Of a stretch of DNA of 44,038 bases, positions 4,972 through 44,038 are shown piece after piece. A program made the position numbers and the translations under genes. The stretch's first letter is position 1. Each line of letters begins with the position of its first letter. The DNA is taken from the IMG/VR virus record IMGVR_UViG_3300025131_008102, positions 1 through 44,038 of that record; one strand, 5' to 3'. The stretch comes from a virus. The notes under the pieces were generated by a model, which made no database searches, was not told the origin of the DNA, and saw only the letters and a program-made list of their open reading frames with translations.

Positions 4972-4979
4972 GGAAACAA

Positions 4980-16132: not shown

Positions 16133-17105
16133 AACAGCCTTAATCACAGGCATCACAGGGCAAGACGGATCATATTTGGCCGACCTTCTGTTGGAAAAGG
16201 GATATCACGTCGTCGGCATGAAGCGCCGCACCTCAATTCTGGCTACCGACAGGATCGATCATATTTTCGAAAACGGAGATCATGTTCTTAATTTTGATTT
16301 AGAATATGGAAACATGAACGATTCTGGAGCCATGCATCGCCTCCTCCGCAAGTATATGCCAGACGAGATTTATAACCTTGCAGCCCAGTCTCATGTTCGA
16401 GTATCTTTCGACACCCCTGAAGAGACAGCCAATTATGTAGGAATGGGTACCCTGCGCCTACTGGAGGCAGTAAGGAATACATGTCCTGAAGCGCGCTTTT
16501 ATCAAGCGTCCTCCTCCGAAATGTTCGGAGACAATCCTGAATATCCCCAGCATGAAGACACCTGCCTCTCCCCAGCTTCACCCTATGCCTGTTCTAAAGT
16601 CTTCGCTCATCACTTAATTAACAATTATCGACAGAGTTATGGGCTTCATGCATCGAGCGGCATTTTATTTAATCATGAATCGCCCCGCCGAGGAGAAACC
16701 TTTGTCACACGCAAAATTACAATGGCCGCAGCCAAGATAAAACTCGGACTCCAAAAGGAACTGTCTTTGGGAAATTTAGATGCCAAGCGCGACTGGGGTT
16801 TTGCGGGAGACTATGTAGAGGCAATGTGGTTGATGTTGCAGCAAGAAATCCCGGACGATTATGTAATCGCCACCGGTGAGACCCACACTGTCAAAGAATT
16901 TTTAGAAGTGGTTTTTAATTACGCCGGCTTAGATATTGAAAAACATGTCACGATTGACGAGCGTCTATTTAGGCCACACGAAGTACCACTTTTACTGGGA
17001 GATCCAAACAAAGCCAAGAGAGTTTTAGGATGGACCCCCACAATTACATTTGAAGATCTTGCAAAAATGATGTATGATGCAGATCTAGCAGAATTAGAAA
17101 AATAA
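16122..17105 (+). CDS. gmd: GDP-mannose 4,6-dehydratase
   Basis: This 327-aa extended SDR has the signature N-terminus [15 protein letters not shown], the QSHVRVSF segment, the catalytic SSSEMFG and PYACSK (Y-x3-K), and the diagnostic [17 protein letters not shown]. It converts GDP-D-mannose to GDP-4-keto-6-deoxy-D-mannose, the substrate of the GDP-fucose synthase upstream; the same intermediate can lead to GDP-rhamnose or GDP-perosamine. No mannose-activating genes are seen here, so the host would supply GDP-mannose. It is the last gene of the sugar cassette. It is slightly shorter than many bacterial homologues (about 340-370 aa). Confidence 0.95.
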
Positions 17106-27300: not shown

Positions 27301-28028
27301 AGAACTTTGAGCCGGCAACAAACGATAGTAAATTAATGCTATGCTTGGTCGATCACTTAGTTAAAGATGAAAAATTTAAACTATTTACTGAATATATCTT
27401 TCCTCTTAATAAGTATACCGCCTTAATGGCAATTTATAATGATCTTGCATTGCTCCCATCAATTGGTGAAAGCATCTATGGGCCGGCGGATTTAGAAGAC
27501 AAAGTGGACGCACTCTTCCAATCATCACCGCCGGCCCAATATAGCCTCTTGGAGCCATGGCAACTCAAGCCCGGTGCCTATTTTGACACACAAGCATATG
27601 CTCAATATGTGGTCGACAACCCCACCGATTATAAGTTACCCGATCCCTTTAACTTGGATGGAGGTACCGACAGCGATGGGCTCCCCCACTATGGTGGAAA
27701 TGATGGCTGGGAAGAATATTCAGTCCGAAAGCCCGGAGCCCTCGCTAGTCTCTTTGGAGAAACTACTTGGGATCAGTGGGATCAGATTCTTTTGAGAAAT
27801 TCGAAGAGTCGAATAAAACAGATATTTAAGAGCTATTATTATGCACGCGATTTTAAGCCTGGAGATTCACTCTATGAAGAGCGTCCGTCGCAGGTTCGTA
27901 AGCAGCGTTTAAGAGATTTGATCAAGCCCCCGGCAGGAATTTCCATTGTACCATTCTGGCAACGCCGTCGTTTACGCCCCAATCCCTTCATTGCATGCGA
28001 AAAAACTGATGATAATTCAGATGAATAG
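21372..28028 (+). CDS. Very large structural protein, 2218 aa, baseplate-associated
   Basis: This acidic protein starts with a Ca-binding-type loop, DKNNDGLIDE (residues 11-20; D-x-N-x-D-G-x-I-D), as in EF-hand or dockerin loops, and a CPDC pair. The middle includes a long, hydrophobic and Met/Ile-rich stretch at about residues 732-775 (ALQKALIEIMMKIMVKICELF). The C-terminal part is beta-rich. I recognise no named family. It sits directly before the gp25-like gene, a position typical of baseplate or tail-tip proteins. It is larger than any T4 baseplate protein, so it could be a fusion of several wedge or hub parts. No internal stop or frame break is seen. Confidence 0.75.
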   Translation: MAKSKFLEYQDKNNDGLIDECGEQPVVPETKECPDCVPDPAAIVPDWKTQSNDEPWYNGKECTYEVTITTPETSMMPSPGATDEESRAYVLTLFGVYQDTAVESLLVNLDKKVTDESVNIVNAYIEHKKYDLDIRPGARLKLLYSIPEKYFSSLEAVSNEDEEEEDDSESTPDGSDVTVVLKNVKNLNLKLIRIRKALYLYGRYYKVFRALDGANLVFEESGKIFDLDAYGDMTMFGNSTSSKILPALDSFLNSKQLDIPNSGKIGSGWSKDKIIKLTLTFAAGYSRLKKIEAEIEGCVDPVVFKGRLLRSLNTREAFKDPTALAYFAQVEEMYQALTKRIPMDWKEYVIQFTFPTIVEKVNYRIDEDDESGAESNLTCMADALLEEGKQLGQDILDPAFSLGDAISYQFHLNICKDPAQAQQEKEELGIEVSQAARDQSYAERARAFTNSVTTVTDPDNPQNSQSIYAFAQEQAYKQITRNQNSFEMLCMNFITSKTAGNLSIDDLFAQSFDRIKICGLQALLLDTIQCLMKGTTLEASLASITKSALSAMSIDTFGRLFIGLPSAQQDDLDNLVRAKLSSGDFFKDSSQNQKLSDQMASNRQIIRPWQDTSSPHYPDRTIAQQFDLNSAKGQLDPKVVMEAYIQALIEVYADDLLALVDLLNEFPGAPIISNIIATLDCPVPPIFNPPVMDFIKDLELPFCRDIGDITLPAVQNPFGWIPSKMDISSVLFQTVTLALQKALIEIMMKIMVKICELFGSFICNALETTGDLAAALVTGNSNEFADIIKASICGPDASDEDVNNAIEDILNTLGPGGGAFADQSDAIQFTQDVSSATTRKELTDAFLGDCSNDFLNIVDSLIEYEYPQLRQGLSNKEKICAFFSNSGNLFPADVKNQMRDFSNQLPENDTLPANPSLCADPTQLENFCQMRIQLLEGRASEEQVREMCENLQEELQDNLTDLGNILQDTPNYISDNMPPIVSEEPGCDDGLIPFEAEEAAKVATITLTDALEKLKLEYVEDMMGDGGVPFTDADWGLLNMLLSDTYGNPLTVHNKKAAAAIGPVMDFITNEDLNLADYTPWTFWMLFIKPMPSLFQKAALPTKVAEWMREYLQDHAPAVEVKNDWQDPETFSRTFKELGFNGFFGGDVDLTQIPDQGFNIKYKINFEDDRVNVIRAGRKATPDTSLEYRDNCKGRKKGQNPTYDHGFKIDMYLSDLHKKDGEIANIPSNNVRVNIDDVQNLTAPGDLPSIFSLFNPLSFGSNTADMFAALVNPTLPDIADEERKYEFFAIDNTFDGIDMTQYPELLRTFEKYEKDAPPQLILLKEIINQQNTSTVTTSLLKAWYNSANTNLEALIGSYFVDSGDAREAYRYGAAYDNLSYTEFDYMAPMEYQTGLSPATHRARVGVWATDYTVNQATGRYTNGDTGLPGLLYADLEIYDPDAIGNYRKVRNSDMILGISRNQYNAEVAHSGDERKIFDETRVFYLNPVQYGGSYKRAPMAVKPLKNRGWMGFVDAIFPPIADCPDTDDDLVDFGSIKKRIDDSYSRIPEDQRLKTPQECAVELPYNRILERVSKAGLESIISAAIQIYVGTHFVKCMPMYTFLKPSVSDNYSNMLISYIVEVMEESLKDAQGPLREMFNTFKDNEFWYAFLEQSVQLYGRLVDDGQIIEVPVHIQEAITRLNDMQSVYDYPNRDALIEAIKLGDEPWYQIFNLPGYRSEKNLEAVQATEEDAKLILGELVAREFNALSQRIEDNLESAGMPSQYDKLAYWFLEQAVEGGQNLNLKGPFTESVADFPQGPEPYYTTGGELYISEKLDNDSPYESGADYIGYYHVHTDESGATIYMAGPEHIEADHDILAPYENKIKMLAADGNGIGGITPGIARHAVSSISGCSVFYYVSVDGVPTLPSTAQTNINSISPIGQSLSEVYPGTLKHVTDEEGSVVGLEGHLGIQHVVEFWYTGYKITSVEIDALDVLTENFEPATNDSKLMLCLVDHLVKDEKFKLFTEYIFPLNKYTALMAIYNDLALLPSIGESIYGPADLEDKVDALFQSSPPAQYSLLEPWQLKPGAYFDTQAYAQYVVDNPTDYKLPDPFNLDGGTDSDGLPHYGGNDGWEEYSVRKPGALASLFGETTWDQWDQILLRNSKSRIKQIFKSYYYARDFKPGDSLYEERPSQVRKQRLRDLIKPPAGISIVPFWQRRRLRPNPFIACEKTDDNSDE

Positions 28029-28054: not shown

Positions 28055-28423
28055 ATGTCTTCTTTAAGTATACATTTACCTATCACACAAAATTCTGCGG
28101 ATGGGTACACAATGATTAAGACCATCAAGAGAATGGTGGCTCAAAATCTAAAAATGATTATTCTCACGAATCCGGGAGAACGAGTCATGGAGCCTAATTT
28201 TGGGGTGGGAATACAACAATTTTTGTTCGCGGGTCGCGGCGAAGGAGTCGAGGGCCAAATTGCGCAAAAGATGCGAGACCAAGTTGGGACCTATTTACCT
28301 AATGTGGTCCTGAATGATATTCAGTTTGGATTTAGTGAACTGGATAGAAATATCATGGCTATTAGGGTTTTATATAGTATCCCAGCCCTAGGTCTTCAAG
28401 ATTTGCTTGACTTAACTATTTAA
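28055..28423 (+). CDS. Baseplate wedge protein, gp25-like
   Basis: This 122-aa protein matches the gp25/GPW family: IKRMVAQNLKMIILTNPGERVMEPNFGVGIQQFLF, with the typical NPGER and FGxGI core (at residues about 42-58). In T4 gp25 and its relatives this is a small wedge subunit that anchors the sheath to the baseplate; the lysozyme-like activity once ascribed to it is doubted. Its neighbour is the gp6-like wedge protein, as in other contractile phages. The start ATG lacks a strong RBS; a GAGAG lies at 28040-28044. Confidence 0.9.
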   Translation: MSSLSIHLPITQNSADGYTMIKTIKRMVAQNLKMIILTNPGERVMEPNFGVGIQQFLFAGRGEGVEGQIAQKMRDQVGTYLPNVVLNDIQFGFSELDRNIMAIRVLYSIPALGLQDLLDLTI

Positions 28424-28437: not shown

Positions 28438-30234
28438 ATGCCAGATGATCAAAAAAAGATTCTTCCCATAGATTATACTAAAAGAGACTTTAGTGGAATC
28501 CGGGATGAATTAACACAAATTGCCGAAAGGTTCTATCCCGACACGTTTCAAGATTTTAGCGAGGCATCATTTGGAAGCATGATGCTTGATGCTGTAGCAT
28601 ATGTAGGAGACCAGCTTTCTTTGTATCTGGATTATAATATTAATGAGTCCTTTTTAGACACAGCTTATCAATATTCTAATATCGTTCGCCACGGTCGCGC
28701 CCTTGGATACAAAAATCCAGGACGCCCTTCTACGTTTGGCCAAGTTGCCCTGTTCGCCATGGTGCCGGCTTCTACAACCGGTATGGGTCCTGATTCACGC
28801 TATCTACCAATTTTACAGCGCGGCTCACGGTTCACTTCCCAGACAGGGCTTAATTTTGTATTGTTGGAAAATGTAGATTTTGCGAAGCCAGACAACCCAA
28901 TTGTCGTCGCGCAAACCGACACCGACACCGGCTCCCCAACGCATTTTGCCATTAAGGCATATGGAAATGTGGTTTCCGGATACTTCTCACAGAAAGAAAT
29001 GTCAGTAGGGGGCTATCAACGGTTTTTGAGATTAAGGATTCCGGGAAGCAACATTTCTGAGATTATATCGGTAACGGATGCCGAAGGCAACGAATATTTT
29101 GAAGTAGATTATTTGTCCCAAGATATTGTTTTTAAAGAAATAGCTAATCAAAATTTTAGAAACGATAATGTTCCTTCCGTAATCAAGCCGACCTTAGTGT
29201 CGCGAAAGTTTATTGTAGAAAGAGACCGGTCAAACACCTATATCCAGTTTGGAAGTGGGAAATCCGGCGACTCGGAAATTGTAGCTAATCCTCAAGCAGT
29301 TGCCATGGAAATCTTCGGCAAAGACTACGTGACCGATACAACGTTTGACCCTTCGAGACTCTCTAAAAATGAAAATTTTGGAACGGTGCCAACCAATACC
29401 ACTCTTACAATTACATATCGTTTAACGAACCCCAACAATTCAAACGTGGCAGTGGGTGGTCTTAATACCGTGGGCCGAATTTCATTAGACTTTAGTGATC
29501 GAACTGGGCTTGTGGCTTCCAAGGTTAGGAGTATTGAAAACTCTATAGAAGTAATTAATGAAACCCCCATTGTGGGAGACGTCACCAACCCAACTAGTGG
29601 AGAAATTAAGCGTCGAGTTTATGATACTTTTCCCACCCAAAACCGCGCCGTCACGCAAGCCGATTATGAAAACCTAATCTATCGCATGCCCGGAAAATTT
29701 GGTTCTGTTAAACGCTGTTCTGCCCAGAAGGATCCTAACTCTTTAAAGAGAAACCTTAATTTATATGTAATTTCTGAAGATGTTTATGGAAAGCTAACTC
29801 GGACCAACCAGACTATTAAAAATAATATTAAAACCTGGATTAATCAATATCGCATGATTAATGACACTATCGACATTTTAGACCCTTACGTGGTGAATCT
29901 TGGCATCGATTTCGTAGTAAAAGCCCAAGCCGGCGCCGACAAATATGATGTTTTAAATCAGTGTATTAACACGTTGGGAGCCAAATACAATCAAGGCTTC
30001 TTTATCGGAGAGCCCTTCTATATCAGTGATATCTATGAGACCTTAAAAAAGGTGCACGGCGTCCTGGATGTGCTCAAGGTGAAAGTAGATAATAAGGTGG
30101 GAGGCAACTACGCCGATACAGTATTAGATATACGCAAAAACCTTTCACCTGATGGTAGCTATTTAATGGTACCAAAAAATGTGATTGTAGAACTTAAGTT
30201 CCCCACGACCGATATTCGAGGAAAGATTAAATAA
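28438..30234 (+). CDS. Baseplate wedge protein, gp6-like (baseplate J)
   Basis: The 598-aa protein starts with IDYTKRDFSGIRDEL and ASFGSMMLDAVAYVGDQLSLYLDYNINESFLDTA, the typical N-terminus of gp6/baseplate-J proteins in T4-like phages. It contains a later region (RRVYDTFPTQNRAVTQADYENLIYRMPG) also seen in the family. Gp6 forms the ring of the baseplate wedge and changes conformation on sheath contraction. Its RBS is GAGG at 28425-28428. It overlaps the next gene as TAATG, and follows the gp25-like gene as in known baseplate clusters. Confidence 0.9.
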   Translation: MPDDQKKILPIDYTKRDFSGIRDELTQIAERFYPDTFQDFSEASFGSMMLDAVAYVGDQLSLYLDYNINESFLDTAYQYSNIVRHGRALGYKNPGRPSTFGQVALFAMVPASTTGMGPDSRYLPILQRGSRFTSQTGLNFVLLENVDFAKPDNPIVVAQTDTDTGSPTHFAIKAYGNVVSGYFSQKEMSVGGYQRFLRLRIPGSNISEIISVTDAEGNEYFEVDYLSQDIVFKEIANQNFRNDNVPSVIKPTLVSRKFIVERDRSNTYIQFGSGKSGDSEIVANPQAVAMEIFGKDYVTDTTFDPSRLSKNENFGTVPTNTTLTITYRLTNPNNSNVAVGGLNTVGRISLDFSDRTGLVASKVRSIENSIEVINETPIVGDVTNPTSGEIKRRVYDTFPTQNRAVTQADYENLIYRMPGKFGSVKRCSAQKDPNSLKRNLNLYVISEDVYGKLTRTNQTIKNNIKTWINQYRMINDTIDILDPYVVNLGIDFVVKAQAGADKYDVLNQCINTLGAKYNQGFFIGEPFYISDIYETLKKVHGVLDVLKVKVDNKVGGNYADTVLDIRKNLSPDGSYLMVPKNVIVELKFPTTDIRGKIK

Positions 30235-31769
30235 TGGGAATCAAACGATATAAGGCCGATGCGGATACAACCATTGTCAACGCTTTCAAACCCAACTTAA
30301 GGTTCCGAGGTACCGGCTCCAATATGGGCGAAGCCGATATTATGGAGGTTTTCTCCATCTATGGCCGCGAAGCTACCGGTTCACAGGAACTTTCTCGTGC
30401 CCTCATTAAATTTCCGATGTCCAACATCACCACAGATCGCACCGCCGGAACCATCCCTGCTAGCGGCAGTGTGACTTTTTATCTCCGCATGTTCGGCGCC
30501 AAGACTACAAAGACGGTGCCTGTAGACTACACTTTGGTGGCTCAACCCGTTTCTGGCACATCCTGGCAAGAAGGTATTGGATTAGATCTAGAAGCCTACA
30601 AGGATGAAGTCAAGGGTAATACGGGAGCCAATTGGATTTCTTCCTCGAAAGGAAAGCCATGGGCTCTTGTAGGGGGAGATTATTATACTGGCAGTGCCGA
30701 CACCTATAAGCAAACTTTCACCACAGGACTTGAAGATCTAGAGATAGATATCACCAAACTTGTGGAAGAATGGGTTGCCGGCACATATTCCAACTATGGA
30801 GTTGGTGTTCACTTAACAGCGAGCCAGGAGGCTTATTTTTCTAAGTCCGCCACCCCGTGGGGTGTCATTGGCAATGCTAGCGGAAGCGTATTAGTACGCC
30901 CAGACGGAGCCACAGTGTCTTATTATACAAAGCGTTTCTTTGCACGCGGCTCCCAATTCTTTTTTAAGAGGCCCGTTTTGGAAGCGCGCTGGAACGATGT
31001 AACCAAAGATGAGCGAGGCGAGTTCTTCTACAGTAGTTCTCTCGCCCCCACCGGAATGAATTTAAATACAATTTATTTATACAACTATGTGCGAGGGCGC
31101 CTAAGAGATATTCCCGGCGTGGGAACAGGAGCCGTACACGTAAGCTTATATTCCGGTACTGTGGGACCTACAGGATCGAAGTTGTTATTACACGATTCGA
31201 AGTATAACGTAAGTGGTGGTCATGTCTCCACAGGGATTTATTCAGCCTCGGTTTGTTTGACAGCCGCCTCCACACCCTTGAAGTATCTTTTTGATGTGTG
31301 GCACAATGATAGCGCCACAGAATATTTTAGTGGCTCAATTGATCCGAAGCCTCTTAGCGGCTCCCAAAAGGCGCACAATAAGATTTACTATATGAATATT
31401 AAAAACTTACAGGGCAGATACCGCAAAGATCAGCGCGCCCGAATCAGACTATATGTGAGGGACAAATATTGGAGCCCGACTATTTACACCAAAGCGAACT
31501 CAACAATAGAGTCCACGACAATTTATAGCGCCTCTTACAAGGTTTATAGAATTTTAGATGGGCTGGATGTTGTGCCATATGGAACAGGTAGCGAACTTCA
31601 CACCCTGTTGTCCTATGATATTTCAGGCAATTATTTTGATTTTAATATGAGTTTATTAGAGACCGGTTACGGTTACGGATTTAAATTTGCTTTTTATGAT
31701 CCGGAACTTGATTCCTGGCTAGAGCAGCCCTATGTATTCAAATTTAGAGTAGAGGATTATGAGTATTAA
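30234..31769 (+). CDS. DNRLRE-like beta-rich structural protein, 511 aa
   Basis: The protein starts with KADADTTIVNAFKPNL and, after about 40 residues, has SRALIKFPM. A later motif, DITKLVEEWVAGTYSNYGVGV (residues about 172-192), is a pattern of DNRLRE-type beta-sandwich domains (strand, tryptophan, N-Y-G-V/I-x-L). These domains are found in secreted and surface proteins. Here it probably forms part of the wedge or a fibre base. The C-terminal half is beta-rich with Tyr and Ser. The start overlaps gp6-like stop (TAATG); its own stop overlaps the giant gene by 11 bases. Confidence 0.7.
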   Translation: MGIKRYKADADTTIVNAFKPNLRFRGTGSNMGEADIMEVFSIYGREATGSQELSRALIKFPMSNITTDRTAGTIPASGSVTFYLRMFGAKTTKTVPVDYTLVAQPVSGTSWQEGIGLDLEAYKDEVKGNTGANWISSSKGKPWALVGGDYYTGSADTYKQTFTTGLEDLEIDITKLVEEWVAGTYSNYGVGVHLTASQEAYFSKSATPWGVIGNASGSVLVRPDGATVSYYTKRFFARGSQFFFKRPVLEARWNDVTKDERGEFFYSSSLAPTGMNLNTIYLYNYVRGRLRDIPGVGTGAVHVSLYSGTVGPTGSKLLLHDSKYNVSGGHVSTGIYSASVCLTAASTPLKYLFDVWHNDSATEYFSGSIDPKPLSGSQKAHNKIYYMNIKNLQGRYRKDQRARIRLYVRDKYWSPTIYTKANSTIESTTIYSASYKVYRILDGLDVVPYGTGSELHTLLSYDISGNYFDFNMSLLETGYGYGFKFAFYDPELDSWLEQPYVFKFRVEDYEY

Positions 31770-34700
31770 GAAACTTTTTGGTTCTGTGGAAGATGGGCGC
31801 AATTACCTTTCCGACACGGACCAGAAGGACGCATTCAAAGACGTAGAGTCGGAACGAAATTTAGAACAGCTTAAAGCTAAGCAGTCAACTTTCGTTCCCC
31901 AGGTCGACTACACCCTACCCTCACAGTTTGCAAAATTTGGTTCTGCGTATCTGTATTATAAAGGCGCAATGACTCAGATTACGGACTATTATCCGTATGA
32001 TGGCTCTGATGCTGAAATCAATAAATTCTATAACAATCTTTTAGATATAGAAAAATACATTTTCAATCACATGTATCCTCGTAGAAACGGATATGTGAAG
32101 CTAGCGGAGTCGACAGGGACAGGGCACTCGGTAACAGGCACTACAGGAGCAGGTGTCGGTCCGGCCGGATATGCTATACCCACTACAAACGAATATATTA
32201 CTTTAAAGGGCGGACCGCATGCTGTTAATGCTACAGCTTCTTTGGTTCAATCTTCTAATGATCCTTATTCTCAAAAATTTCAATATTCGAATGTTTATGA
32301 TACTAGCATTTATACGACGGAGGGGCTGCCTTCGGATTATGGGCAAGGCACGCGCCAGTCCAATTTACAATCTAATTTTGATACGGGAGTTTCTATAGAA
32401 TTTTGGATGAAGAAGCCGTCATTCAATTCGTCTGAAGATGGAAATAGAGAAACCATTTTTGATTTATGGACGAGTGGTTCTCATACATCCTCTGCTGATT
32501 ATGGAAGAATTATATTAGAACTTACGGGCGGTGCTACAGCGACCAGTCCTTTCTTGTTAACAGTACACTCAGGCGCCACCTCCGCTTTTACCAGAGTAGA
32601 AATCGGCTCTGCGTCCCTCACTCCTAGTTCACTAGCCACCTGGACTCATATTGGATTGGTCATGTATAATACAGGATCCGATTTTATATCCAAACTTTAT
32701 GTGAATGGTGCGCTTAACAACACACAAACAGCCGCTGGCACTACTATAAATCAGCTTAAACAAAAAGATACCATGGCGCGCATCGGAGCCCTTTTAACGG
32801 CGCCTAATGATGCAGATTTCAGATTTGATCCTGGAGTGCTAGCCGGCGCAAACAAACTTAGTGCCTCTCTAGATGAATTCCGTTTCTGGAAAGTTAAGAG
32901 ATCGGCACAAGATATTGGACGCTACTGGTTTACGCAGGTACGCGGCGGCAGCAACACCGATATTTCTAACACGACCCTTGGTGTCTATTATAAATTTAAC
33001 GAGGGTATAACGGACAACAGCACCATTGACAGCAATGTTTTGGACTACTCGGGGCGTATCTCTAACGGTAATTGGATAGGATACGGCACAAACTCTAGAT
33101 CTACAGGATCGGCTATTGTAGAGGCGTCAGCCTCCGCCACCGAATATAAAGATCCTATTATCTATAGCCAGCATCCACGGGTCGCCGGTTTAAGAGAAGG
33201 GCTTCTTGAAAGCGGGTCTTATTATGATGACACCAATAACTCCCTATTCATGAATTATGCGCCCAACTGGGTTATTGAAGAGCACCGTGATAATGAAAAC
33301 AGCAACCTAGCTATTATTTCCCATATCATGGGAAGCTATTTTGATAAGCTGTATTTGCAATCTCGCGAATTATCCCGATTGAAAGGGACAAACTATACCA
33401 GCGCATCAGCGCAACCCCTCCCATTTGCGCAGCATCTACCGCAGTCTTTAGGATTATACACTCCGCAGATCTTTATTGATGCTACTGTAATGGAGCGCTT
33501 TTTAGATAGAAACAATGACTCTCGATTCTCTGGCAGTTTGGACGAGACTAAGAATCTTGTTTACTTAAATCTTTATAACAATCTCACGAACATTTTTAAG
33601 TCGAAGGGAACAGAAAAAGCATTAAGAAATGTATTGCGATGTTTTAATGTTGACGAGAAGCTCATCAAGATTAATACGTATGCTCAAAATACAACATTCC
33701 CTTTGAGCAACAATTATGAGCAAGTATTAGAAACCAAAAATTACGTTAACTTTAATAAAGTCGCCAACAGAAGCGCTGTTATATATCAGAGTGTTTCCGG
33801 ATCTGGGCTAGAATCTCAAAATCTTTATCCGCAGCCAACATTGCCGACTCATTGGCGGGAACCTAACGCCGATCTCTCTTCTTGGACCCAAGGCCGCGGG
33901 TTTATTAGCGCAAGTGTTAATCAATATGAAGTGAATTATGGCGCAACAATTGAAGCAGAAGCGTTGTTTCCCTATTGGGATAATAGAAATTATAGCGCCG
34001 ATCCACGCGATTATACAACGGTATCGCTTTTCGGAATGGTAACACCACTGACTTCTTCGGGCACCCCAGATGTCGGATCCCAAAAACCGAACGGGCCCGG
34101 GCTGAGTGGTTCAGATACCACAGTCAATCCGGATGATTATGCCAATTTTCGGGTACAAGCAATTAAGGAGTCGCCGACATCTAAAAATGTTTATTTTGTA
34201 TTAACTTCCTCAGCCGCGGCAAGCTCAGTACACCCCAGTGGTTCGAGCTTAGCCAAATCTTCTATTTTCCCACTTTTATCCAGTAGTGCGTTCTTTAATA
34301 TTTATGATAACACGATATGGAATTTTTCAGTTCGCGTTGAAGCGAAACACGATACCCCCACGATTTATATTACAGGATTAGGAGACAGTTCACCCTATAA
34401 ACCCGAGTATAATGTTATATTTGAAGGGCGTAATATTGATTCGGGCTTCGTGCGCAATAAGTTCTCCGTGACTGGAACTATCCCATATGTTTCCGGAAAC
34501 AATTTCTTAAAAACACCAAAAAGACTTTTTGCAGGCGCCGAGAGAACAAATTTAACGGGAACATTAATAAACAAGTCCGATGTTCTCATAGGCTCTATGA
34601 AATATTGGGCCAAGTCGCTACAGGATGGCACATTAGCCCAGCACGCTCATGACGTCGATAATTATGGTATTTCCGGCTCCTATCAAAACGTAAGTGCCAT

Positions 34701-37700
34701 TGATACCAAAAATGCCAGTTCTGATGTATTGAATTTGAATACTTTGCTACTGAATTGGACTTTCGGACAAGTTACAGGATCGAACGCCGGCGGAAACTTT
34801 AGTATTTTAGATTTGAGTTCTGGATCGATAGCGCGCCAATATGAATATGGAACAATGGGCGCCCTCACCGGGTATCAACAGCCCGGCTGGGGCTATGGGT
34901 TCCCCGCTACAAGCTCTGGCTCCATTAAGAAGAAGCAAATAAACACCTTTAAGTTTATTGAACCCGAAAGGGCAACTTCTGGGGATGCGATCCAAATTCT
35001 GTCCGAAGATGACAAGGTTTTCGGCGTAGTCGAAACGGTACCCAATTATGTCTATACAGTTGAAAAGAGCATGTATCGGGCAATCTCTGAAGAAATGCTC
35101 GACTTCTTTGCGGGAGTTGTAGACTTTAATAATCTTATTGGTGCCCCTGTTAACAGATATCGCATGCGCTATAAAGCGCTTGAGCAACTCCGCGGCATTT
35201 TCTTTGAACGTGTAACCCAGACTAGTCAAGTAGAAAAGTTTGTAGAATACTACAAATGGTTTGATGACGCGATGACCCAGATTATGGGACAGTTGGTACC
35301 AGCTTCTTCCGACTTTACCTCAGATGTTTACAATGTTATTGAAAGTCATGCGTTAGAGAGAAACAAGTACAAGACTCAATATCCTACTTTGGAAACCAAC
35401 CCGGGAGAACCCGGTGGCGCCATCCAAGGCATCGGGGAGATGGGCATTGATTATTCCGAAATGGCTTCAACCCTGGCGGCATCTCCGCGGCCAACTAACA
35501 AGCACATTCCTTTCTGGAAGAAACGAGCCAAAAGGTCATCCCCAGAAATTACTTCTGGCGATGCGACGATTGATACTCAACGCGAAACCTACCGACTTGT
35601 TATCAATTCTGCTCCACGATTTGCGACCAAACCTTTAGTAGCCGTAACCAGAGCCGGCACCAATTATGAACCAAATCTATATGCCAACAGAAATTTCCAG
35701 AAGCTTTATGAGCTAAAACACGGAAAAGTAAACGAATCGTTGATTCATGGCGGCGTGAACTTCGAAAGAGGCAAGAACATTCACTATGTCTATAACTCTT
35801 TGTATCCTTTTGGTCCCATCGACACGACGGGCGGACGTTTTGTCCCACTCAATGTGTTGTTAGGGCTTACCAAGGATATGACTCCTATCCAAAACTTCTT
35901 AGATAATCGAGAGCTAAGAAAGCGCGTTAAGAGAGCAGTTCTGGTATACTCAGGTCGAGATTTCCAGAAGGGCGTAGGTTACGAAAACATGAAGTCGACG
36001 CTAGCGTTCCCCTTCAACATTATGAGTTCGTCGGTCACTACCGGCTTTAATCAGGAGGTAGTGAACAACGTTGGCGCCGGACTAGAAATCACAAACCTTC
36101 ACAATGATGTTTATGGTCCAGATATGGAAGTACCCATGCAGGGACCATTCACCGAGAAGTATGTTGGCGGACACCAGTCACGGCATGTAGGGCTGAACAC
36201 TGGGAGCGTGCCTGATACCTATAAGACACGACCTGAAGCATGGAAGCTCTTAGTTGGCGAGTGTCCCGATCAAGGTACTGGTTCTGTGGGTATGGCCTCT
36301 CCGACCTATCCGTATCCGGATGTGGGCGCGCCCCCAAGCAGTTCAGTAGGCACTATTAAGATTACCAATACTCTTGGGATTGGAGATTACGTTACGATTG
36401 GCGACGGCGGAAGTTCGGTTAAATTTAAAATCCCTTTTGAAAATGACAAGGCTATGTTGTTCCAAGATCGCGCAGGCTCATTGGTGGCTTTATCGGGAGA
36501 TGCATCGGCAAGTTATGGGCTCCCTTCCGACCATCCTTTGGATTATTATCTTATTGAAAAAGGCACTATTAGCGCATGGCTTCGTGCTGACCGCACCACT
36601 GGCACTGGTTGGATTTTTGCCGCGGGACTGAGCCACGGAATTATGGCTTTTGGATATCGAAGCGATAATAAATTACAGCTTTATCAACAGTGGTATAACG
36701 CCGATGGAGGGGGAAACGTAAATGTAGACTTTCGCACCGATGCCGCGGCCATTACCGATGGTGTGTGGCACCATGTTGCCGTAACCTATGATGCTACTTT
36801 AACCGGAGCCATGGATCCTAAGTTCTTTGTCGACGGGGTTTTGCAAGCTTCTTCGGTTTCAACAGCTGTCCCCACGGCTGCGGGCTCTCAGCTTAGACTC
36901 AGGCAAAAAGTTGAAGGAACATTGTCCGGGTGTGGTGCATGTAGAGTAATAACCGCGATTGGTGGCTCTGGAAATGCTACCGTTACTGTGAGTGGTGCGC
37001 TCGATGAAGTCAACATCTGGCAGCTAAGCATGAGTGCTGATCAGATTACTGAGTTGTATGCCACCGGAAGCGTGTTGAATCTAAAACAACATTCAGCATA
37101 TTTGAATAATAGCGCGAGTTTATATTCCTGGTACCGAATGGGAGATGACGCCAGTGATGCTATCGATGGCACGGGAAATTATGACTTAGGGACCAATTCG
37201 ATAGTTGATCAAACTGGACGCGCAAACGGTAATCCTGGAGATGTGTCGAGTCCCGCGATGTCATTTACGACCAATGTAACTACTGCTTCCGCTGATCCAG
37301 ACACGTTTACTACATGGACAAATGGGGCAACAGTTAGTATCACGGCTCAGAATCTTACAGATGCAGTTAATGCATCTTCGTTGAACATTAGTGCATCAAA
37401 GGGAGCAGGCTCATGGCTAACGTTAGCCAACACTAAATATGGTGTGTCCGGCTCCTCAAAGAGAAGTGCACGCGGCTCTCTCGGAAACGTTACCATTGTT
37501 GCCTCGGCTTCTTCTGGCCAGATCTGGCCTTTCGGAATGTCTGGCGGTGTAGATCCTGTAATTCTCAACTTTAACGCACCACGCGCAACTTATTACCGAG
37601 ACTTTATCGCAAAGAGCCCTGTAAACATTCGTAACATTCAAATGAAGACGGGTTCCACCATTATCGGGAACTACCAGCACAACTATGAAGTTGTTAACTC

Positions 37701-40700
37701 TGTCGGAGCTTTCGGAAACCCACGCTCCTTCATCGAGAATCAGCCTACACTGCCGTCTGTTATCACCTCCAATACAAACCTTAACAAGGGAGGCTCCGCC
37801 AGTTTCGGTGGCACCCAGACCGGACAGACAGTACTTAATTACCTAACCCTCAACCGAGAATCTGCAAGTCATTTTGATTTCGGACTTGATTATGGAATTA
37901 CGGACAACTCCGGCGCTTACGCCAATAAGTCGATTATCGTATCGCGATTTGGTGCTCCTGGTGGCCGCGAAACCATGGCAAGAGGTTATCAAGATTTTAG
38001 ATCAGGTGAATATTCGGTATACAATGCGGTACCTTATAGAAACTTGACAGTGTTGGATGCCGGCGGCGCCGGTACTTATGTTCTTTCTAATATGGATCCC
38101 ACCGCGCTGATTGTGACAAGTTCGGGCTACCAGATTACTGCTAGCGGCTACAGAGTGAATGACATTCACAACCGACCGTTTGGTTTGCGTCAGCACTTGG
38201 CGCGCCACTCAGGACGTTTTGGGCGAGATTCCTATGCTATTACGGGCGCCACCTTTGCTCTTAACGGACCGGGAGCATCGTATAATCAGTTACCGGCCTA
38301 TAATAAGACCAATAGAAATCCGCAGAAAAAACTTATAATAGCATATGATGGAAATTATTTAACTTCGAGCCAAAGGGATAACTATTTTGTTTCACATCAA
38401 ATCCCGCGCTCTGACCGTCAATATCTCTGGATTACATCTTCATTAGTGAGCGAGAACGATAACTTTAGATACCTTCCTCGCGATTATATGGTGAGTACCT
38501 CTCTTGGATATGTGGAACCTTATTCGTTTGTGAGCGCCAGCGCCGTAGGTTCTGCTATCTATGTCGGATCTCGCCGCTGGGGATACCCTCCTGGGGAAGG
38601 CTCTGGTACCGGCTCCAGTGCCCAGCCCACCGATTTTGCCGGCATCAATTTTAACGTCTATGAACCCGTTAGCTCATCAACAAACATACTGGGATATCCC
38701 TCTTCCGTAGAACTCTTCGATGGCACCGCAGCATCCGGTCAATATATAAATCGTACAACTGTTCCGCTCTCCCGGTGGAGTGCTGGCTCTATATATTTCG
38801 CGCGTCTCCAAAGCTATGCATTTAATGCATTAATGCTTCATCGGAACGGACCTTATGGATGGCCAATTTTTAAGCAGATTGATTATAACAATCCCCTCAC
38901 TCGCTACGAAAAGCGCAATAACCTGCTTTCAGTGTATACTCCTGGTACCGGAGACAATGGCACAGATTTTAAACACTTCGATCTTTCTCCCGTTTCTATG
39001 CGAGGCAGACCTGCCAAGATTAACTTCGACACATCCGACACAGAAGATGTAACCTTGGTGGCATCTCATAACAACATGGAGATCTTCTTTAAGAGCAACG
39101 AGCTTAATGATATGGTAGGAGTGGATTACGATGAAATCTCCACACCGCTAGAACAAGTAATGGAGATCACTAGAGTTAATCCTTCCTATAGCCCTAACTG
39201 GATTATGTATAGTGAGAATATTTTCCCGTCTTCTCGCAATGAATTTGAGAGTTATGCAACTCAGCGAACCGGCTATAACAACAAATATTGGGCGAAAACA
39301 CAAGACCGCGCGCTCGGTGATGCTACAACGCAAGCTCCACGCGTGGCATTAGCACTAGAGCAAGAACTTTCTAATTCGTTTGGCATTACGATGAACAATG
39401 CGCCTTTACCTGACCCCAACGATGGAAGGACGATGACTGGTCAAAACTATTTACAACTTACTCAATCCGCATGGCCCCTGGATCCTCCTCAAGATTTCAT
39501 GACACGATGCTTGTGGGGAGATACAGATAACCACCCCACAGATCTTGGAAATCGCACGCCCGATGCGAGCGTTGGATGGTGGTATTATCCCATCTTCGCC
39601 GGCAATATCCATCCTAGTACTGCCAGCGCGTATGCCAGCAATATAGATGCCTTCGCGTCGTACCGACAAAACATTTTCCGCGGCGAGCCCTCCAGTGGTG
39701 TAGGAAACGGCGCCGGCGCCGGCGAACTTCAAAATTACTATGTGATGCCATCCATAAGATCGACCCAATATAACCGTACTGTTGCTGTGACGCAAATGTC
39801 CCCCGGCGCCCTCTATGCACGCAAGCAGACTCTCGGATCACCGAAATCGGTGGTAAGCCCTACAGGTATTGAGATATCAGCCACTGGCTCTTTGACAGGA
39901 GCATTTGATCTTTATGAGCAATTAATGATTGCATCGGGTGCTGACGGAGGATTGATACAAGGAAATGGAATTTGGGCGGGAGAAGCCGCGTGGGATGCAC
40001 CGAGCAATGCAAGTATTATTGTTCAATCTGGCTCTATCGAGCGTTCAATTTCCCGCCCGTCAGAACCATGGTTTACTACATATGATGACTTTAAGCAAGA
40101 TTTGAAATTAAAAGCCAAAGATTTTTCAATTGTTCCCGAGTTTCGTATTAGCGAACATGTAACCGACTTTAAGAGACACGGAATATCCAATCAAGACAAA
40201 TCTAACATTTTTGAAATTCCCGGTACTGGTATCAATAGTGAAACTACAAGCAGCTTTGGCTTGGATTATTCTAATTCTGAATTTCTTAAAGACTTTTTGA
40301 AAATCAAAGAAGACTCTCTTTTGGATGCTACCGAAATTAAACTAGAGTGCGAAGCAGCAATTCGATTCAATTCATATAAGGGCTTCTTTCCAGTTCAAAG
40401 ATCGACAGATCTGGTATCTCAATGGTCTAGTTCATATTTCGATGGTCTTATGGCAAATGTGAGACGAATGGGCGAGGATCTTCGCTACGTACAGGCAACG
40501 ACCGGAGCCGTGGGCCGTGATTTATTGCGGGTAAATGGTGGTGCCACTCGCCCTGTCATAGCTCCGCTATTCGCCCCAGGAATTCTCTATAACTCTATTA
40601 AATCGGGGATGGCAGTAGATTATCCGATAATTACCGATGGCACCAAGATGCTTCATTGGCCATTTTTGTCTTCATCGCGCGCCGGTACTGTGGGCTCTGC

Positions 40701-43700
40701 CTATGATTTAACTAGCAGCGGCTGGAATAGTGCCGACTGTACCGTTCGCTATACTTCGTCTGCCGCTGATCAGCTTGTAGCTTGGTGGCCTTTGACCGAG
40801 GATGTATCATCCGCTGGAAACTCCGGAGATTCTAGCAGTTATAGCCACGATGCCGATTGGTCCACGTTCGGCTCAAGGCCAGGTTATGACGGTACCGCTA
40901 CCCCTGCCATCTATGTGGGTCAGGGTTGTCAGCGCATAGATGATTCTGCTCGCGAGTGCGGCGATATCGGCGCCGCAACTATCTGGAATCCAATTATTGG
41001 CAACGACACCGGCGGAGGCTCGAATGAGATGGTAACCATCGCCGGATGGATTCAAATCGACGAATACGACGGAGTAGCCACTAACAACGTCATCATAGGC
41101 TTTGGAGATACGTCGCTACCCGAGACCGCCGGCGTTGGAGAGATAACTTTTGGATATATGCCCTCGCTGGCACGATTAACTTTGACGACACGATGGAATG
41201 GGGGTGATCAGACTCTTTGGCTAAGCAGCTATGTTTTTGAACAAGAGACTCCATATACGTTAGGTGAGGAGAGTGCTTGGTATCACGTAGCAGTAACATA
41301 TGACGCCACAGATCCCGCCAATTTACCCATTATGTATATTAATGGACTCAATGCTTACGCCTACGAGGCTGCATGGAAGGCTACTCCTACTGGTGTATGG
41401 GACGGCATTCAATCAGGCTCGTGTACTATTAGTGGTTATAACCAGCTATATACCTGGAACGGGAACATGCAAAACCTCTCTGTGTGGAAGACGATTTTGC
41501 CTGTGGACGAGATACGGGCTCTGGCTCAAGCAAAAACTTTCCAGAATAAAGTTGGTGGTTGGGCGTATGTTACTGGAACCAATGGTTTTAATTATGCCAT
41601 TACCCCCAATGCTAATAATTTAAAGAAATCGGCCGAAGACCCCGCGGGTTATACTGGAACTGGATCATTTTGGGACAAGCGAATTCCTTTTGAGGCAATT
41701 ATTCGACCCGAGCTTTATATGGCTCGGGATCCTCTCATAGACTTAGAATCCCATTCTTGGGCAAATCTCAAAAATGTAACAACTTCAATGGGCAATAGTC
41801 CAAATGATGATCTTTATAGTTTAATGGCTAGCAACTACTTCGCCGAAATTGGCAATTTCTTTCTGCAGGATTCTCAATATACTAAATTAGAATCTGATGT
41901 GGTAGGAGACAAGCTACTATTCGAATCAGGAAGTGTTTATGCGGCGCGCATTAAATTGCGTAGATCAACTACGGGTCCTCGTATCTATAGTTTTGAGCCC
42001 GATTCTAATGGAAATACTTACGCTGCTTCGACGTCTTCTATTCACGGACCTTCATTTTATCGGCCCCTCGGAGGCTCAACTACTTATAGTGGTGACCCGG
42101 ACACCCCAACCGTTCGAACTTTCTTCCCCACCGCTGCCTACTTCCCACTCCCACAGGATCCCCAATTCGCCGGTACAACCTTTTCCACCGCCGGCGGCGG
42201 TAGTGAAACAATCCGAACTCCAGGATTCCGAGAGACTTTTACTTTATATAGCCGCCCCACAGCGTTTGGTCCGCCCGTAGCTTCGGGCCGCATTTCGGGA
42301 ACCCTGGCATTTGATACGAATGCTTCGACGGTTAACATCGTAACTCCATTACGAAGTCGCCCGGGACGATACACCTATTCGCCTAATGGTCCCCCGGCCC
42401 TCCCTCAACAAATATCTGCTGCATATGTGCAAGAAAACGTGAATAGCCCGATGGATTCCTATAGCGGATACAATTGGGCGTTTACTCCTCCGTACTATAA
42501 TGGGGAATCTTGGGCTGACATTATTTTCTGGCCAACAGCCGGGAAAGAATATGGTGTGGAAGATATTTTATCAGAGGCCAAAATTCAGTATTGGAGATAT
42601 GATGGCGGCGGCCGCGGACGCGCTGGGGATTTGGCTGCCGCACGCCGGGAGGCAGATAGATCCGCCACAGTAAAAAATGATGCGTGGGGAACTTGTAAAT
42701 TAGGATTCACTGGATCCGGGAATATGTCCTCGATTGATGGCGTCATAGCCGACCGCGGCGCAATTTCCGGCGCCTTTGTGGGTTCCGTTCCTGGCATTTA
42801 TGATGCAGATTCTATTAATAGAAATGCTATGCAAATGTCCGCTAGCATTAACTTGTTAGGCATCGAAAAAGTACAGTTTACTGAAAGAGACAAATTTGAT
42901 AATATTACGTCTACTCGCGACACATCCACAGGCACCAAGTGGGTAATCCAGCCTAAATTTGAAACTCCTCATTTAAACTTTAACAACGCATATAGTCAAG
43001 CTAAAATGCCTCTTTATGGGTCCGCATCGGTACCTATTGGAATATGGCATCAATTTGGAGATATTCCGACAGATCCAAATGTGGGTATTTTCTTAGAAAT
43101 TGATGATATTCCACGGCAATGGCAGAAAAACCATTATGAAATGTGGATGTTTGATAGTATCTATAATAATAATAATGCATCCGGGTTTGGAAATCAAGAG
43201 CGCTTTAGATCTCTATCACGCGTATTTGGCTTTAAAAATGAAACTAAGTCAAAACGCCTGGGAGAGTTAAAAGACAGTCAAACCTTGCGTGAGGCAATTG
43301 TGGCTGTTCCCTATATCACAGATGTGTCTCCATCCGTCAATCCTGCTGTAGGTATGAGTAACGATTTGGTCCAAACAAACAAAAAGTTTATTAATATTCC
43401 CATCGAAAGATTTGAAGCAGCGCAAAAGGCCCGCGAAGGCAGTCTCGAAGGAGACTCTTTAGTGACCGCCGGCGAATCCATTCGTAAGTTAATTCAGAAA
43501 ATGAATCGGTACGTCCTGCCACCTCAGTTTGATTTCATGAATAATAGATCAGTTGATCCTATGGTCATGTATCTCTTTGAGTTTGAATACAAATTAGATC
43601 GAGACGACTTATCATATATTTGGCAGAACCTCGCACCTCGCGACTATAAGAAATTAACCTTCCAGAAATCATCTATTGCTCACGAACTAATGGATACCGA

Positions 43701-44038
43701 GTTGTTATCTCAAGCAAATATTATGGACAATCCTAATTTGCGTTGGATGATATTTAAAGTTAAGCAGAGATCTCAGGCAACTTATGAGGAGATAACCGTC
43801 GCACAAGCCGGCGATACCCCTCGAACCCCGTTCGTACAGGGCGCAGTAGACCCAAAAACCGGCTATAAGATTGCCTATAACTGGCCCTATGATTATGTTT
43901 CTTTCGTAGAAATGGTGAAGATTGATGCGCAAGTCTTGTATGGTGGAAGAGGCACTGCCCAAAACCGCTTGTCGCCCAATAGAACAACCCCATCACCGCT
44001 TCTAGAGTCCCCCTCGGACCTGCAGGCAGGACTGACAC
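31759..44038 (+). CDS. Giant multi-LamG structural protein (partial at 3' end), at least 4093 aa
   Basis: A single frame is open from the ATG at 31759 to the window edge, 4093 codons plus one base, without a stop; I read it line by line and saw no frame break. It starts MSIKKLFGSV. Three concanavalin/LamG-like domains are visible: about residues 205-400 (SIEFWMKK ... LDEFRFWKV), 1600-1775 (TISAWLRAD, WHHVAVTYDAT, LDEVNIWQL) and 3090-3255 (VTIAGWIQI, WYHVAVTYDAT, MQNLSVWKT). The second and third share the WxHVAVTYDAT strand. The rest is beta-rich and Ser/Gly/Thr-rich with several long, more conserved-looking parts. It follows baseplate genes and is probably a virion protein that contacts the host glycan; which part of the tail is unknown. 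Confidence 0.85.
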   Translation, partial: MSIKKLFGSVEDGRNYLSDTDQKDAFKDVESERNLEQLKAKQSTFVPQVDYTLPSQFAKFGSAYLYYKGAMTQITDYYPYDGSDAEINKFYNNLLDIEKYIFNHMYPRRNGYVKLAESTGTGHSVTGTTGAGVGPAGYAIPTTNEYITLKGGPHAVNATASLVQSSNDPYSQKFQYSNVYDTSIYTTEGLPSDYGQGTRQSNLQSNFDTGVSIEFWMKKPSFNSSEDGNRETIFDLWTSGSHTSSADYGRIILELTGGATATSPFLLTVHSGATSAFTRVEIGSASLTPSSLATWTHIGLVMYNTGSDFISKLYVNGALNNTQTAAGTTINQLKQKDTMARIGALLTAPNDADFRFDPGVLAGANKLSASLDEFRFWKVKRSAQDIGRYWFTQVRGGSNTDISNTTLGVYYKFNEGITDNSTIDSNVLDYSGRISNGNWIGYGTNSRSTGSAIVEASASATEYKDPIIYSQHPRVAGLREGLLESGSYYDDTNNSLFMNYAPNWVIEEHRDNENSNLAIISHIMGSYFDKLYLQSRELSRLKGTNYTSASAQPLPFAQHLPQSLGLYTPQIFIDATVMERFLDRNNDSRFSGSLDETKNLVYLNLYNNLTNIFKSKGTEKALRNVLRCFNVDEKLIKINTYAQNTTFPLSNNYEQVLETKNYVNFNKVANRSAVIYQSVSGSGLESQNLYPQPTLPTHWREPNADLSSWTQGRGFISASVNQYEVNYGATIEAEALFPYWDNRNYSADPRDYTTVSLFGMVTPLTSSGTPDVGSQKPNGPGLSGSDTTVNPDDYANFRVQAIKESPTSKNVYFVLTSSAAASSVHPSGSSLAKSSIFPLLSSSAFFNIYDNTIWNFSVRVEAKHDTPTIYITGLGDSSPYKPEYNVIFEGRNIDSGFVRNKFSVTGTIPYVSGNNFLKTPKRLFAGAERTNLTGTLINKSDVLIGSMKYWAKSLQDGTLAQHAHDVDNYGISGSYQNVSAIDTKNASSDVLNLNTLLLNWTFGQVTGSNAGGNFSILDLSSGSIARQYEYGTMGALTGYQQPGWGYGFPATSSGSIKKKQINTFKFIEPERATSGDAIQILSEDDKVFGVVETVPNYVYTVEKSMYRAISEEMLDFFAGVVDFNNLIGAPVNRYRMRYKALEQLRGIFFERVTQTSQVEKFVEYYKWFDDAMTQIMGQLVPASSDFTSDVYNVIESHALERNKYKTQYPTLETNPGEPGGAIQGIGEMGIDYSEMASTLAASPRPTNKHIPFWKKRAKRSSPEITSGDATIDTQRETYRLVINSAPRFATKPLVAVTRAGTNYEPNLYANRNFQKLYELKHGKVNESLIHGGVNFERGKNIHYVYNSLYPFGPIDTTGGRFVPLNVLLGLTKDMTPIQNFLDNRELRKRVKRAVLVYSGRDFQKGVGYENMKSTLAFPFNIMSSSVTTGFNQEVVNNVGAGLEITNLHNDVYGPDMEVPMQGPFTEKYVGGHQSRHVGLNTGSVPDTYKTRPEAWKLLVGECPDQGTGSVGMASPTYPYPDVGAPPSSSVGTIKITNTLGIGDYVTIGDGGSSVKFKIPFENDKAMLFQDRAGSLVALSGDASASYGLPSDHPLDYYLIEKGTISAWLRADRTTGTGWIFAAGLSHGIMAFGYRSDNKLQLYQQWYNADGGGNVNVDFRTDAAAITDGVWHHVAVTYDATLTGAMDPKFFVDGVLQASSVSTAVPTAAGSQLRLRQKVEGTLSGCGACRVITAIGGSGNATVTVSGALDEVNIWQLSMSADQITELYATGSVLNLKQHSAYLNNSASLYSWYRMGDDASDAIDGTGNYDLGTNSIVDQTGRANGNPGDVSSPAMSFTTNVTTASADPDTFTTWTNGATVSITAQNLTDAVNASSLNISASKGAGSWLTLANTKYGVSGSSKRSARGSLGNVTIVASASSGQIWPFGMSGGVDPVILNFNAPRATYYRDFIAKSPVNIRNIQMKTGSTIIGNYQHNYEVVNSVGAFGNPRSFIENQPTLPSVITSNTNLNKGGSASFGGTQTGQTVLNYLTLNRESASHFDFGLDYGITDNSGAYANKSIIVSRFGAPGGRETMARGYQDFRSGEYSVYNAVPYRNLTVLDAGGAGTYVLSNMDPTALIVTSSGYQITASGYRVNDIHNRPFGLRQHLARHSGRFGRDSYAITGATFALNGPGASYNQLPAYNKTNRNPQKKLIIAYDGNYLTSSQRDNYFVSHQIPRSDRQYLWITSSLVSENDNFRYLPRDYMVSTSLGYVEPYSFVSASAVGSAIYVGSRRWGYPPGEGSGTGSSAQPTDFAGINFNVYEPVSSSTNILGYPSSVELFDGTAASGQYINRTTVPLSRWSAGSIYFARLQSYAFNALMLHRNGPYGWPIFKQIDYNNPLTRYEKRNNLLSVYTPGTGDNGTDFKHFDLSPVSMRGRPAKINFDTSDTEDVTLVASHNNMEIFFKSNELNDMVGVDYDEISTPLEQVMEITRVNPSYSPNWIMYSENIFPSSRNEFESYATQRTGYNNKYWAKTQDRALGDATTQAPRVALALEQELSNSFGITMNNAPLPDPNDGRTMTGQNYLQLTQSAWPLDPPQDFMTRCLWGDTDNHPTDLGNRTPDASVGWWYYPIFAGNIHPSTASAYASNIDAFASYRQNIFRGEPSSGVGNGAGAGELQNYYVMPSIRSTQYNRTVAVTQMSPGALYARKQTLGSPKSVVSPTGIEISATGSLTGAFDLYEQLMIASGADGGLIQGNGIWAGEAAWDAPSNASIIVQSGSIERSISRPSEPWFTTYDDFKQDLKLKAKDFSIVPEFRISEHVTDFKRHGISNQDKSNIFEIPGTGINSETTSSFGLDYSNSEFLKDFLKIKEDSLLDATEIKLECEAAIRFNSYKGFFPVQRSTDLVSQWSSSYFDGLMANVRRMGEDLRYVQATTGAVGRDLLRVNGGATRPVIAPLFAPGILYNSIKSGMAVDYPIITDGTKMLHWPFLSSSRAGTVGSAYDLTSSGWNSADCTVRYTSSAADQLVAWWPLTEDVSSAGNSGDSSSYSHDADWSTFGSRPGYDGTATPAIYVGQGCQRIDDSARECGDIGAATIWNPIIGNDTGGGSNEMVTIAGWIQIDEYDGVATNNVIIGFGDTSLPETAGVGEITFGYMPSLARLTLTTRWNGGDQTLWLSSYVFEQETPYTLGEESAWYHVAVTYDATDPANLPIMYINGLNAYAYEAAWKATPTGVWDGIQSGSCTISGYNQLYTWNGNMQNLSVWKTILPVDEIRALAQAKTFQNKVGGWAYVTGTNGFNYAITPNANNLKKSAEDPAGYTGTGSFWDKRIPFEAIIRPELYMARDPLIDLESHSWANLKNVTTSMGNSPNDDLYSLMASNYFAEIGNFFLQDSQYTKLESDVVGDKLLFESGSVYAARIKLRRSTTGPRIYSFEPDSNGNTYAASTSSIHGPSFYRPLGGSTTYSGDPDTPTVRTFFPTAAYFPLPQDPQFAGTTFSTAGGGSETIRTPGFRETFTLYSRPTAFGPPVASGRISGTLAFDTNASTVNIVTPLRSRPGRYTYSPNGPPALPQQISAAYVQENVNSPMDSYSGYNWAFTPPYYNGESWADIIFWPTAGKEYGVEDILSEAKIQYWRYDGGGRGRAGDLAAARREADRSATVKNDAWGTCKLGFTGSGNMSSIDGVIADRGAISGAFVGSVPGIYDADSINRNAMQMSASINLLGIEKVQFTERDKFDNITSTRDTSTGTKWVIQPKFETPHLNFNNAYSQAKMPLYGSASVPIGIWHQFGDIPTDPNVGIFLEIDDIPRQWQKNHYEMWMFDSIYNNNNASGFGNQERFRSLSRVFGFKNETKSKRLGELKDSQTLREAIVAVPYITDVSPSVNPAVGMSNDLVQTNKKFINIPIERFEAAQKAREGSLEGDSLVTAGESIRKLIQKMNRYVLPPQFDFMNNRSVDPMVMYLFEFEYKLDRDDLSYIWQNLAPRDYKKLTFQKSSIAHELMDTELLSQANIMDNPNLRWMIFKVKQRSQATYEEITVAQAGDTPRTPFVQGAVDPKTGYKIAYNWPYDYVSFVEMVKIDAQVLYGGRGTAQNRLSPNRTTPSPLLESPSDLQAGLT

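What the first reader, a model, noticed from the sequence alone, without database searches (positions are those of the whole stretch)
31759..44038. Giant open frame (over 4093 codons) with three LamG-type domains
It is one of the longest open frames expected in a phage, occupying over a quarter of the window with no stop. LamG-like domains are spaced about 1400-1500 residues apart, and the second and third share a WxHVAVTYDAT strand, consistent with internal duplication. Other long blocks between them carry no recognised family. It could be a modular host-glycan-binding baseplate or fibre protein.
Basis: partly seen in the sequence, partly recalled or inferred. Interest (0 to 1): 0.8.

Follow-up and report, generated by a model that had tools for sequence, protein, structure and literature searches.

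The report
Giant phage baseplate protein with LamG inserts
A marine virus of bacteria makes a roughly 4,200-residue protein that looks like an enlarged version of a normal tail-baseplate part, into which sugar-binding-type modules have been inserted and swapped at several fixed places, probably so that the baseplate itself can grip different hosts.

Summary
The open frame is real: 31759-44037, 4,093 codons, no stop. It is cut by the contig end, because the window is the whole IMG/VR record. The nearest relative (L096, 58% identical) ends about 95 residues further on, so the protein is near-complete at about 4,190 aa. Sixty complete relatives and more than 500 hits in IMG/VR show a conserved core. 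It sits in a four-gene wedge operon, gp25 - gp6 - DNRLRE protein - giant, also present in Flavobacterium phage immuto and Microcystis phage Mel-JY01. Residues 466-1207 are homologous to their 1.3-kaa proteins (hhalign 6e-25) and hold a KSKGTE motif for which P2 gpI (Tail_P2_I) is the most frequently hit Pfam family, below cut-off. Best reading: a giant gp7/gpI-like (Tri2) wedge subunit. The three LamG domains are real and a fourth, cryptic jelly roll lies at 659-1065. LamG1 is in nearly all copies. The others come and go at discrete sites; LamG3 is absent from L096. LamG2 and LamG3 are not an internal duplication. Giant LamG-bearing wedge-locus proteins are known beside cyanophage gp6 (S-WAM1, 6,737 aa), so this is a new variant of a known kind. 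Glycan binding is inferred.

The parts
31759..44037 (+). Giant ORF, 4,093 codons, open at contig end; about 95 C-terminal residues missing judged by L096
28055..28423 (+). gp25-like baseplate wedge protein, first gene of the conserved operon
   Evidence: PF04965 E=2.5e-11, phrog_261 E=3.5e-16
28438..30234 (+). gp6-like baseplate wedge subunit
   Evidence: phrog_6 E=3.3e-15; 29% identical to the annotated baseplate wedge protein of Flavobacterium phage immuto over the whole length
30234..31769 (+). 511-aa DNRLRE-type protein between gp6 and the giant; overlaps the giant's start by 11 nt
   Evidence: NCBIfam DNRLRE E=8.6e-8, 32.4 bits vs cut-off 34; homologues in the giant-ORF loci and in the same slot of Mel-JY01 and immuto, hhalign 1.9e-14 and 3.2e-9
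31759..32310 (+). Conserved N-terminal core segment, aa 1-184
   Evidence: occupancy about 0.8-1.0 in complete relatives
32311..33153 (+). LamG1, aa 185-465; present at this place in nearly all relatives
33154..33738 (+). Tri2/gp7/P2-gpI-like segment, aa 466-660
   Evidence: hhalign 3.4e-21 to the immuto/Mel-JY01 family; Tail_P2_I is the most frequent Pfam match of this segment
33598..33612 (+). KSKGT motif, aa 614-618; K-x-K-G invariant in 54 sequences
33733..34953 (+). Cryptic LamG/pentraxin-type jelly roll, aa 659-1065, not seen by Pfam
   Evidence: AlphaFold2 model; VIA-align Z up to 16.2 to pentraxin/LG domains
35026..35379 (+). End of the wedge-like core (ESHxLERNKY block), aa 1090-1207, shared with Mel-JY01
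35461..36348 (+). Conserved core block, aa 1235-1530
36349..37488 (+). Insertion cassette at site A, aa 1531-1910, carrying LamG2 (36478-37305); occupied in L096 too, empty in most relatives
37489..40677 (+). Conserved core, aa 1911-2973; site B (aa about 2192-2200) carries a LamG in many relatives but not here
40678..41592 (+). Insertion cassette at site D, aa 2974-3278, carrying LamG3 (40978-41640); absent in L096
41593..43968 (+). Conserved C-terminal core, aa 3279-4070; no PDB fold found with the AlphaFold2 model

Best explanation
A virion baseplate-wedge protein of a large uncultured marine contractile-tailed phage, occupying the position of T4 gp7 / P2 gpI (the 'triplex 2' subunit that pairs with two gp6-like subunits). 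Shown: it is the fourth gene of a wedge operon (gp25, gp6, DNRLRE protein, giant); a roughly 700-residue core is homologous to the protein in the same slot of cultured phages immuto and Mel-JY01; it keeps the KxKGT element of the Tail_P2_I segment; LamG-type modules are inserted into a conserved scaffold at discrete sites, one in nearly all copies and others gained or lost between close relatives. Inferred: the gp7/gpI-like segment anchors six copies in the wedge ring; the LamG and jelly-roll domains project outward and bind host-surface glycans, adding avidity or host specificity; exchange of cassettes retunes host range without disturbing baseplate assembly. Confidence by step: baseplate component about 0.85; gp7/gpI equivalence about 0.65; glycan binding about 0.6.
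For: Operon position and identities. Core homology to immuto/Mel-JY01/LR756508 wedge-locus proteins: hhalign 6.2e-25 over 544 columns, 3.4e-21 for the KGT segment. Tail_P2_I matches 15 of 54 KGT segments, the runner-up 3 of 54, and turns up for three of the five separately tested wedge-locus proteins. The KGT motif aligns at the same spot to T4 gp7, Melnitz, S-WAM1 and P2 gpI. LamG census: 1-3 per complete protein, LamG1 in nearly all, others at about four sites; most LamG1 copies fall in one clade. LamG3 cleanly missing in the closest relative. Precedents: cyano- and pelagimyophages replace gp7 by VrlC (PMC7029224); a CBM-bearing wedge protein, Vp4 Gp119, binds host cells (PMC11406892).
Against: Direct profile matches to T4 gp7 and P2 gpI are not significant alone (hhalign P 0.0016-0.05), and Tail_P2_I stays below Pfam's cut-off (13.2 vs 20.6 bits). 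The 54 segments are related, so 15 of 54 are not independent votes. Structure searches did not return gp7, though the jelly roll filled the lists and the model is moderate (pLDDT 66.6). No virion proteomics. Ligands of the LamG domains unknown. Most of the C-terminal 2,900 residues have no counterpart in gp7 or gpI.
Confidence: 0.65

Rival explanations
1. A long tail fibre or receptor-binding protein that merely lies next to the wedge genes; LamG domains are spaced along an elongated fibre.
For: LamG and other lectin-like domains are common in phage receptor-binding proteins; the protein is very long; extra LamGs vary between relatives.
Against: The N-terminal third is homologous to wedge-locus proteins that sit apart from the annotated fibre/spike genes in immuto, and carries the KGT element. 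The scaffold is conserved to the C-terminus, unlike typical fibres. Comparing the conserved blocks with each other showed no repeats apart from overlaps of adjacent blocks.
Confidence: 0.18
2. A structural scaffold in which the LamG-type domains serve protein-protein contacts inside a large double-layered baseplate, not glycan binding. (This overlaps the best explanation on the baseplate role and differs on the LamG role, so the confidences do not add to 1.)
For: LamG1 is in nearly all relatives and fairly conserved; the cryptic jelly roll region also aligns in Mel-JY01. Jelly rolls often mediate protein contacts (general knowledge).
Against: LamG2 and LamG3 type modules come and go between close relatives, which argues against an essential internal contact for those.
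Confidence: 0.3
3. Internal duplication produced LamG2 and LamG3.
For: Shared WxHVAVTYDAT strand.
Against: 25% identity over 103 aa, E 4e-4, against 34%, E 1.6e-25 for LamG3 vs a LamG of another phage; separate branches in the tree, although the LamG3 branch is long and its place unsure.
Confidence: 0.05

Closest known systems
Proteins after the gp6 operon in Flavobacterium phage immuto (YP_010114574, 1,265 aa) and Microcystis phage Mel-JY01 (WWT39511, 1,336 aa), both annotated hypothetical
   Same: Same operon slot, homologous core including the KxKGT element
   Different: A third of the length; immuto lacks the jelly-roll region, Mel-JY01 has a comparable one; neither gives a Pfam LamG hit
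Giant protein after gp6 in cyanophage S-WAM1 (YP_009325074, 6,737 aa; phrog_701 / phrog_2885 matches) and VrlC of pelagimyophages
   Same: Same place directly after gp25-gp6, giant and modular, LamG plus YHYH domains, KGT motif; VrlC is said to replace gp7 (PMC7029224)
   Different: No detectable sequence homology beyond the KGT motif; no DNRLRE gene annotated between gp6 and the giant in S-WAM1
T4 gp7 and P2 gpI (Tail_P2_I, PF09684), the triplex 2 wedge subunit
   Same: Operon position after gp6/gpJ; KGT/KGI element; sub-threshold Tail_P2_I matches
   Different: 4 to 24 times longer; LamG inserts; direct profile match not significant
Uncharacterised proteins of uncultured marine viruses in UniProt/BFVD (A0A1B1IWQ4, A0A0F7L9Z0 and others)
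   Same: Close relatives over the modelled region, Foldseek E down to 4.5e-63, 31-38% identity
   Different: Unannotated; no function proposed there

Membership tests
Laminin_G_3 / LamG (PF13385) | Match above Pfam cut-off | tested here: met
   86.7 bits vs 27.6, three stretches
Tail_P2_I / triplex 2 (P2 gpI, T4 gp7) | Match above Pfam gathering score | tested here: not met
   13.2 vs 20.6 bits for the window segment; top-ranked family by member count, best E 0.0038
Tail_P2_I / triplex 2 (P2 gpI, T4 gp7) | Gene in the gp25 - gp6 wedge operon | tested here: met
   one DNRLRE gene intervenes, as in immuto and Mel-JY01
Tail_P2_I / triplex 2 (P2 gpI, T4 gp7) | Structural match to gp7 / gpI core fold | tested here: inconclusive
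   Foldseek and VIA lists filled by the jelly roll; helical part pLDDT mostly 45-79
Tail_P2_I / triplex 2 (P2 gpI, T4 gp7) | Forms a heterotrimer with two gp6-like subunits | not testable with these tools
   needs cryo-EM or complex prediction
immuto / Mel-JY01 wedge-locus protein family | Significant profile similarity plus same gene slot | tested here: met
   hhalign 6.2e-25; slot
Cyanophage giant virion protein (phrog_701 / phrog_2885) | Significant PHROG or profile match | tested here: not met
   no PHROG hit; hhalign P 0.84 vs S-WAM1 N-terminus, 0.37
Tail fibre / receptor-binding protein | Demonstrated host receptor binding | not testable with these tools
   needs binding assay

The most novel reading that the evidence does not exclude
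In a widespread uncultured marine phage lineage, the core wedge subunit itself has become the main, rapidly re-equipped receptor-binding platform: LamG cassettes move between phages and between about four fixed sites of one giant protein, replacing separate fibres as the determinant of host range.
Probability: 0.2. Interest if true: 0.65.

Novelty: new variant of a known kind. Interest (0 to 1): 0.42.

Why it matters
It gives a likely place and role to giant proteins left unannotated in hundreds of marine phage contigs, and names a cultured entry point (Flavobacterium phage immuto, Microcystis phage Mel-JY01) for testing them. It also offers a natural series in which lectin-type modules are present or absent at the same sites of a conserved baseplate scaffold, so their role in host recognition can be tested.

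Tried and rejected
tblastn of the first 2,914 aa against phage records: no match at 1e-5; N- and C-terminal parts at E up to 10: nothing useful. PDB sequence searches with core profiles: only chance-level hits. Direct hhalign to T4 gp7, S-WAM1, Melnitz and P2 gpI: motif-level only. C-terminal model (pLDDT 67) against PDB: no usable match; this does not show a new fold. Foldseek ranked toxin binding domains highly for the jelly-roll model; these are chance-level or common-fold matches (E above 0.001) and say nothing of toxicity. A flanking direct repeat at the LamG2 cassette was suggested by overlapping BLAST ends but there is none in protein or DNA. A scan of genomes gave only four MAG contigs, so no host was assigned. 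Literature searches found no paper on this protein family.

Full report
Observation. The frame 31759-44037 is open for 4,093 codons. The window is the entire 44,038-base IMG/VR record, so the frame is cut by the contig end. From base composition about 221 stops would be expected. The nearest relative, L096 on a 203-kb contig, is 58% identical over aa 1-2973 and 55% over 3279-4086 and ends about 95 residues beyond the window's last codon in an Arg/Gly-rich tail. The full protein should be near 4,190 aa.

Distribution. gp6 of this phage found 40 loci in IMG/VR, and 20 of 20 records searched hold a homologous giant frame. Sixty complete frames were catalogued; the unsplit ones run from 2,831 to 4,753 aa. 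In a few phages the protein is encoded as two genes (L069/L078 2,252+2,139 aa; L142, L154, L164), split around core position 2190-2500, so the two parts can exist as separate chains. Annotated phage records hold no close relative.

Gene context. The giant is fourth in gp25 (28055-28423), gp6 (28438-30234), a DNRLRE-type protein (30234-31769), giant. The same order occurs in Flavobacterium phage immuto and Microcystis phage Mel-JY01, with gp6 29% identical and the DNRLRE protein homologous; both have an extra gene before the large one.

Core identity. The aa 430-1235 profile aligns to the 1.3-kaa proteins of immuto, Mel-JY01 and LR756508 at 6.2e-25 over 544 columns, the KGT segment alone at 3.4e-21. 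The segment has an invariant K-x-K-G, T nearly invariant. Scanning 54 such segments against 24,736 Pfam families, Tail_P2_I (P2 gpI) was hit by 15 members and no other by more than 3; separately it was found for the window, Mel-JY01 and LR756508, but not for immuto or L069. The window, Mel-JY01 and LR756508 scores are below Pfam's cut-off, and direct comparisons with T4 gp7, pelagimyophage/cyanophage and P2 proteins align at this motif with P 0.0016-0.05. I therefore say it works like gp7/gpI with moderate confidence and do not file it as a Pfam member.

LamG modules. A LamG profile iterated on the relatives finds 1, 2 or 3 copies in 21, 23 and 8 full-length proteins. LamG1 (aa 185-465) is present in nearly all and most copies form one clade (SH-aLRT 100). 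Additional copies sit in tandem with LamG1, at site A (about 1530-1910), site B (about 2190-2205, the commonest), around 2390-2770, or at site D (2974-3278, only here). L096 has LamG1 and LamG2 but lacks LamG3. LamG3 is closest to LamGs at other sites in other phages (34%, E 1.6e-25), not to LamG2 (25%, E 4e-4). This reads as gain of mobile modules, not internal duplication; no flanking repeats mark the LamG2 insertion. An AlphaFold2 model of aa 430-1235 (pLDDT 66.6) shows a further jelly roll at aa 659-1065 with VIA-align Z up to 16.2 to pentraxin/LG domains, a common fold that does not prove function.

Known comparisons. Cyanophage S-WAM1 has a 6,737-aa virion structural protein directly after gp6 with LamG, YHYH and a KGT motif. 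Pelagimyophages and cyanophages are reported to lack gp7 and carry VrlC instead (PMC7029224). In Bacillus phage Vp4 a wedge protein with a CBM fold binds host cells (PMC11406892). The window's protein is thus a new variant of an existing theme, in a lineage where it had not been annotated as far as the collections searched here show.

Mechanism. Most likely six copies are built into the wedge ring through the gp7/gpI-like segment; the LamG-type modules are displayed and bind surface glycans. The first step is supported by homology and operon, the second is inference from domain type, turnover and precedent.

Noticed in passing
21372-28028: A 2,218-aa protein upstream of gp25; a long protein lies at that place in relatives too (e.g. 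2,102 aa in L074, similar N-terminus), without a recognised family.
   Followed up: no
4962-9779 and 16122-17105: Cluster of glycosyltransferases and two nucleotide-sugar epimerases, possibly for virion or host-surface glycosylation.
   Followed up: no
1821-3170: PhoH-like protein with PIN domain.
   Followed up: no
L069, L078, L142, L154, L164: The giant is encoded as two adjacent genes in these phages.
   Followed up: partly
L096:20880-21181: Arg/Gly-rich, probably disordered basic C-terminal tail of the nearest relative's giant protein.
   Followed up: no
L249-L252: Relatives on contigs of MAGs labelled Poseidoniales, WOR-3 (within a 2.8-Mb chromosome record) and Maricaulis; probably phage sequence binned or assembled with them.
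   Followed up: no
L120, L124, L127, L128, L134, L135, L140, L148: The LamG1 site carries two LamG copies in tandem or with a spacer.
   Followed up: partly
L086:20165-37191: The cyanophage S-WAM1 giant protein also gives a weak Phycobilisome match (2.5e-7, no stretch passing alone).
   Followed up: no
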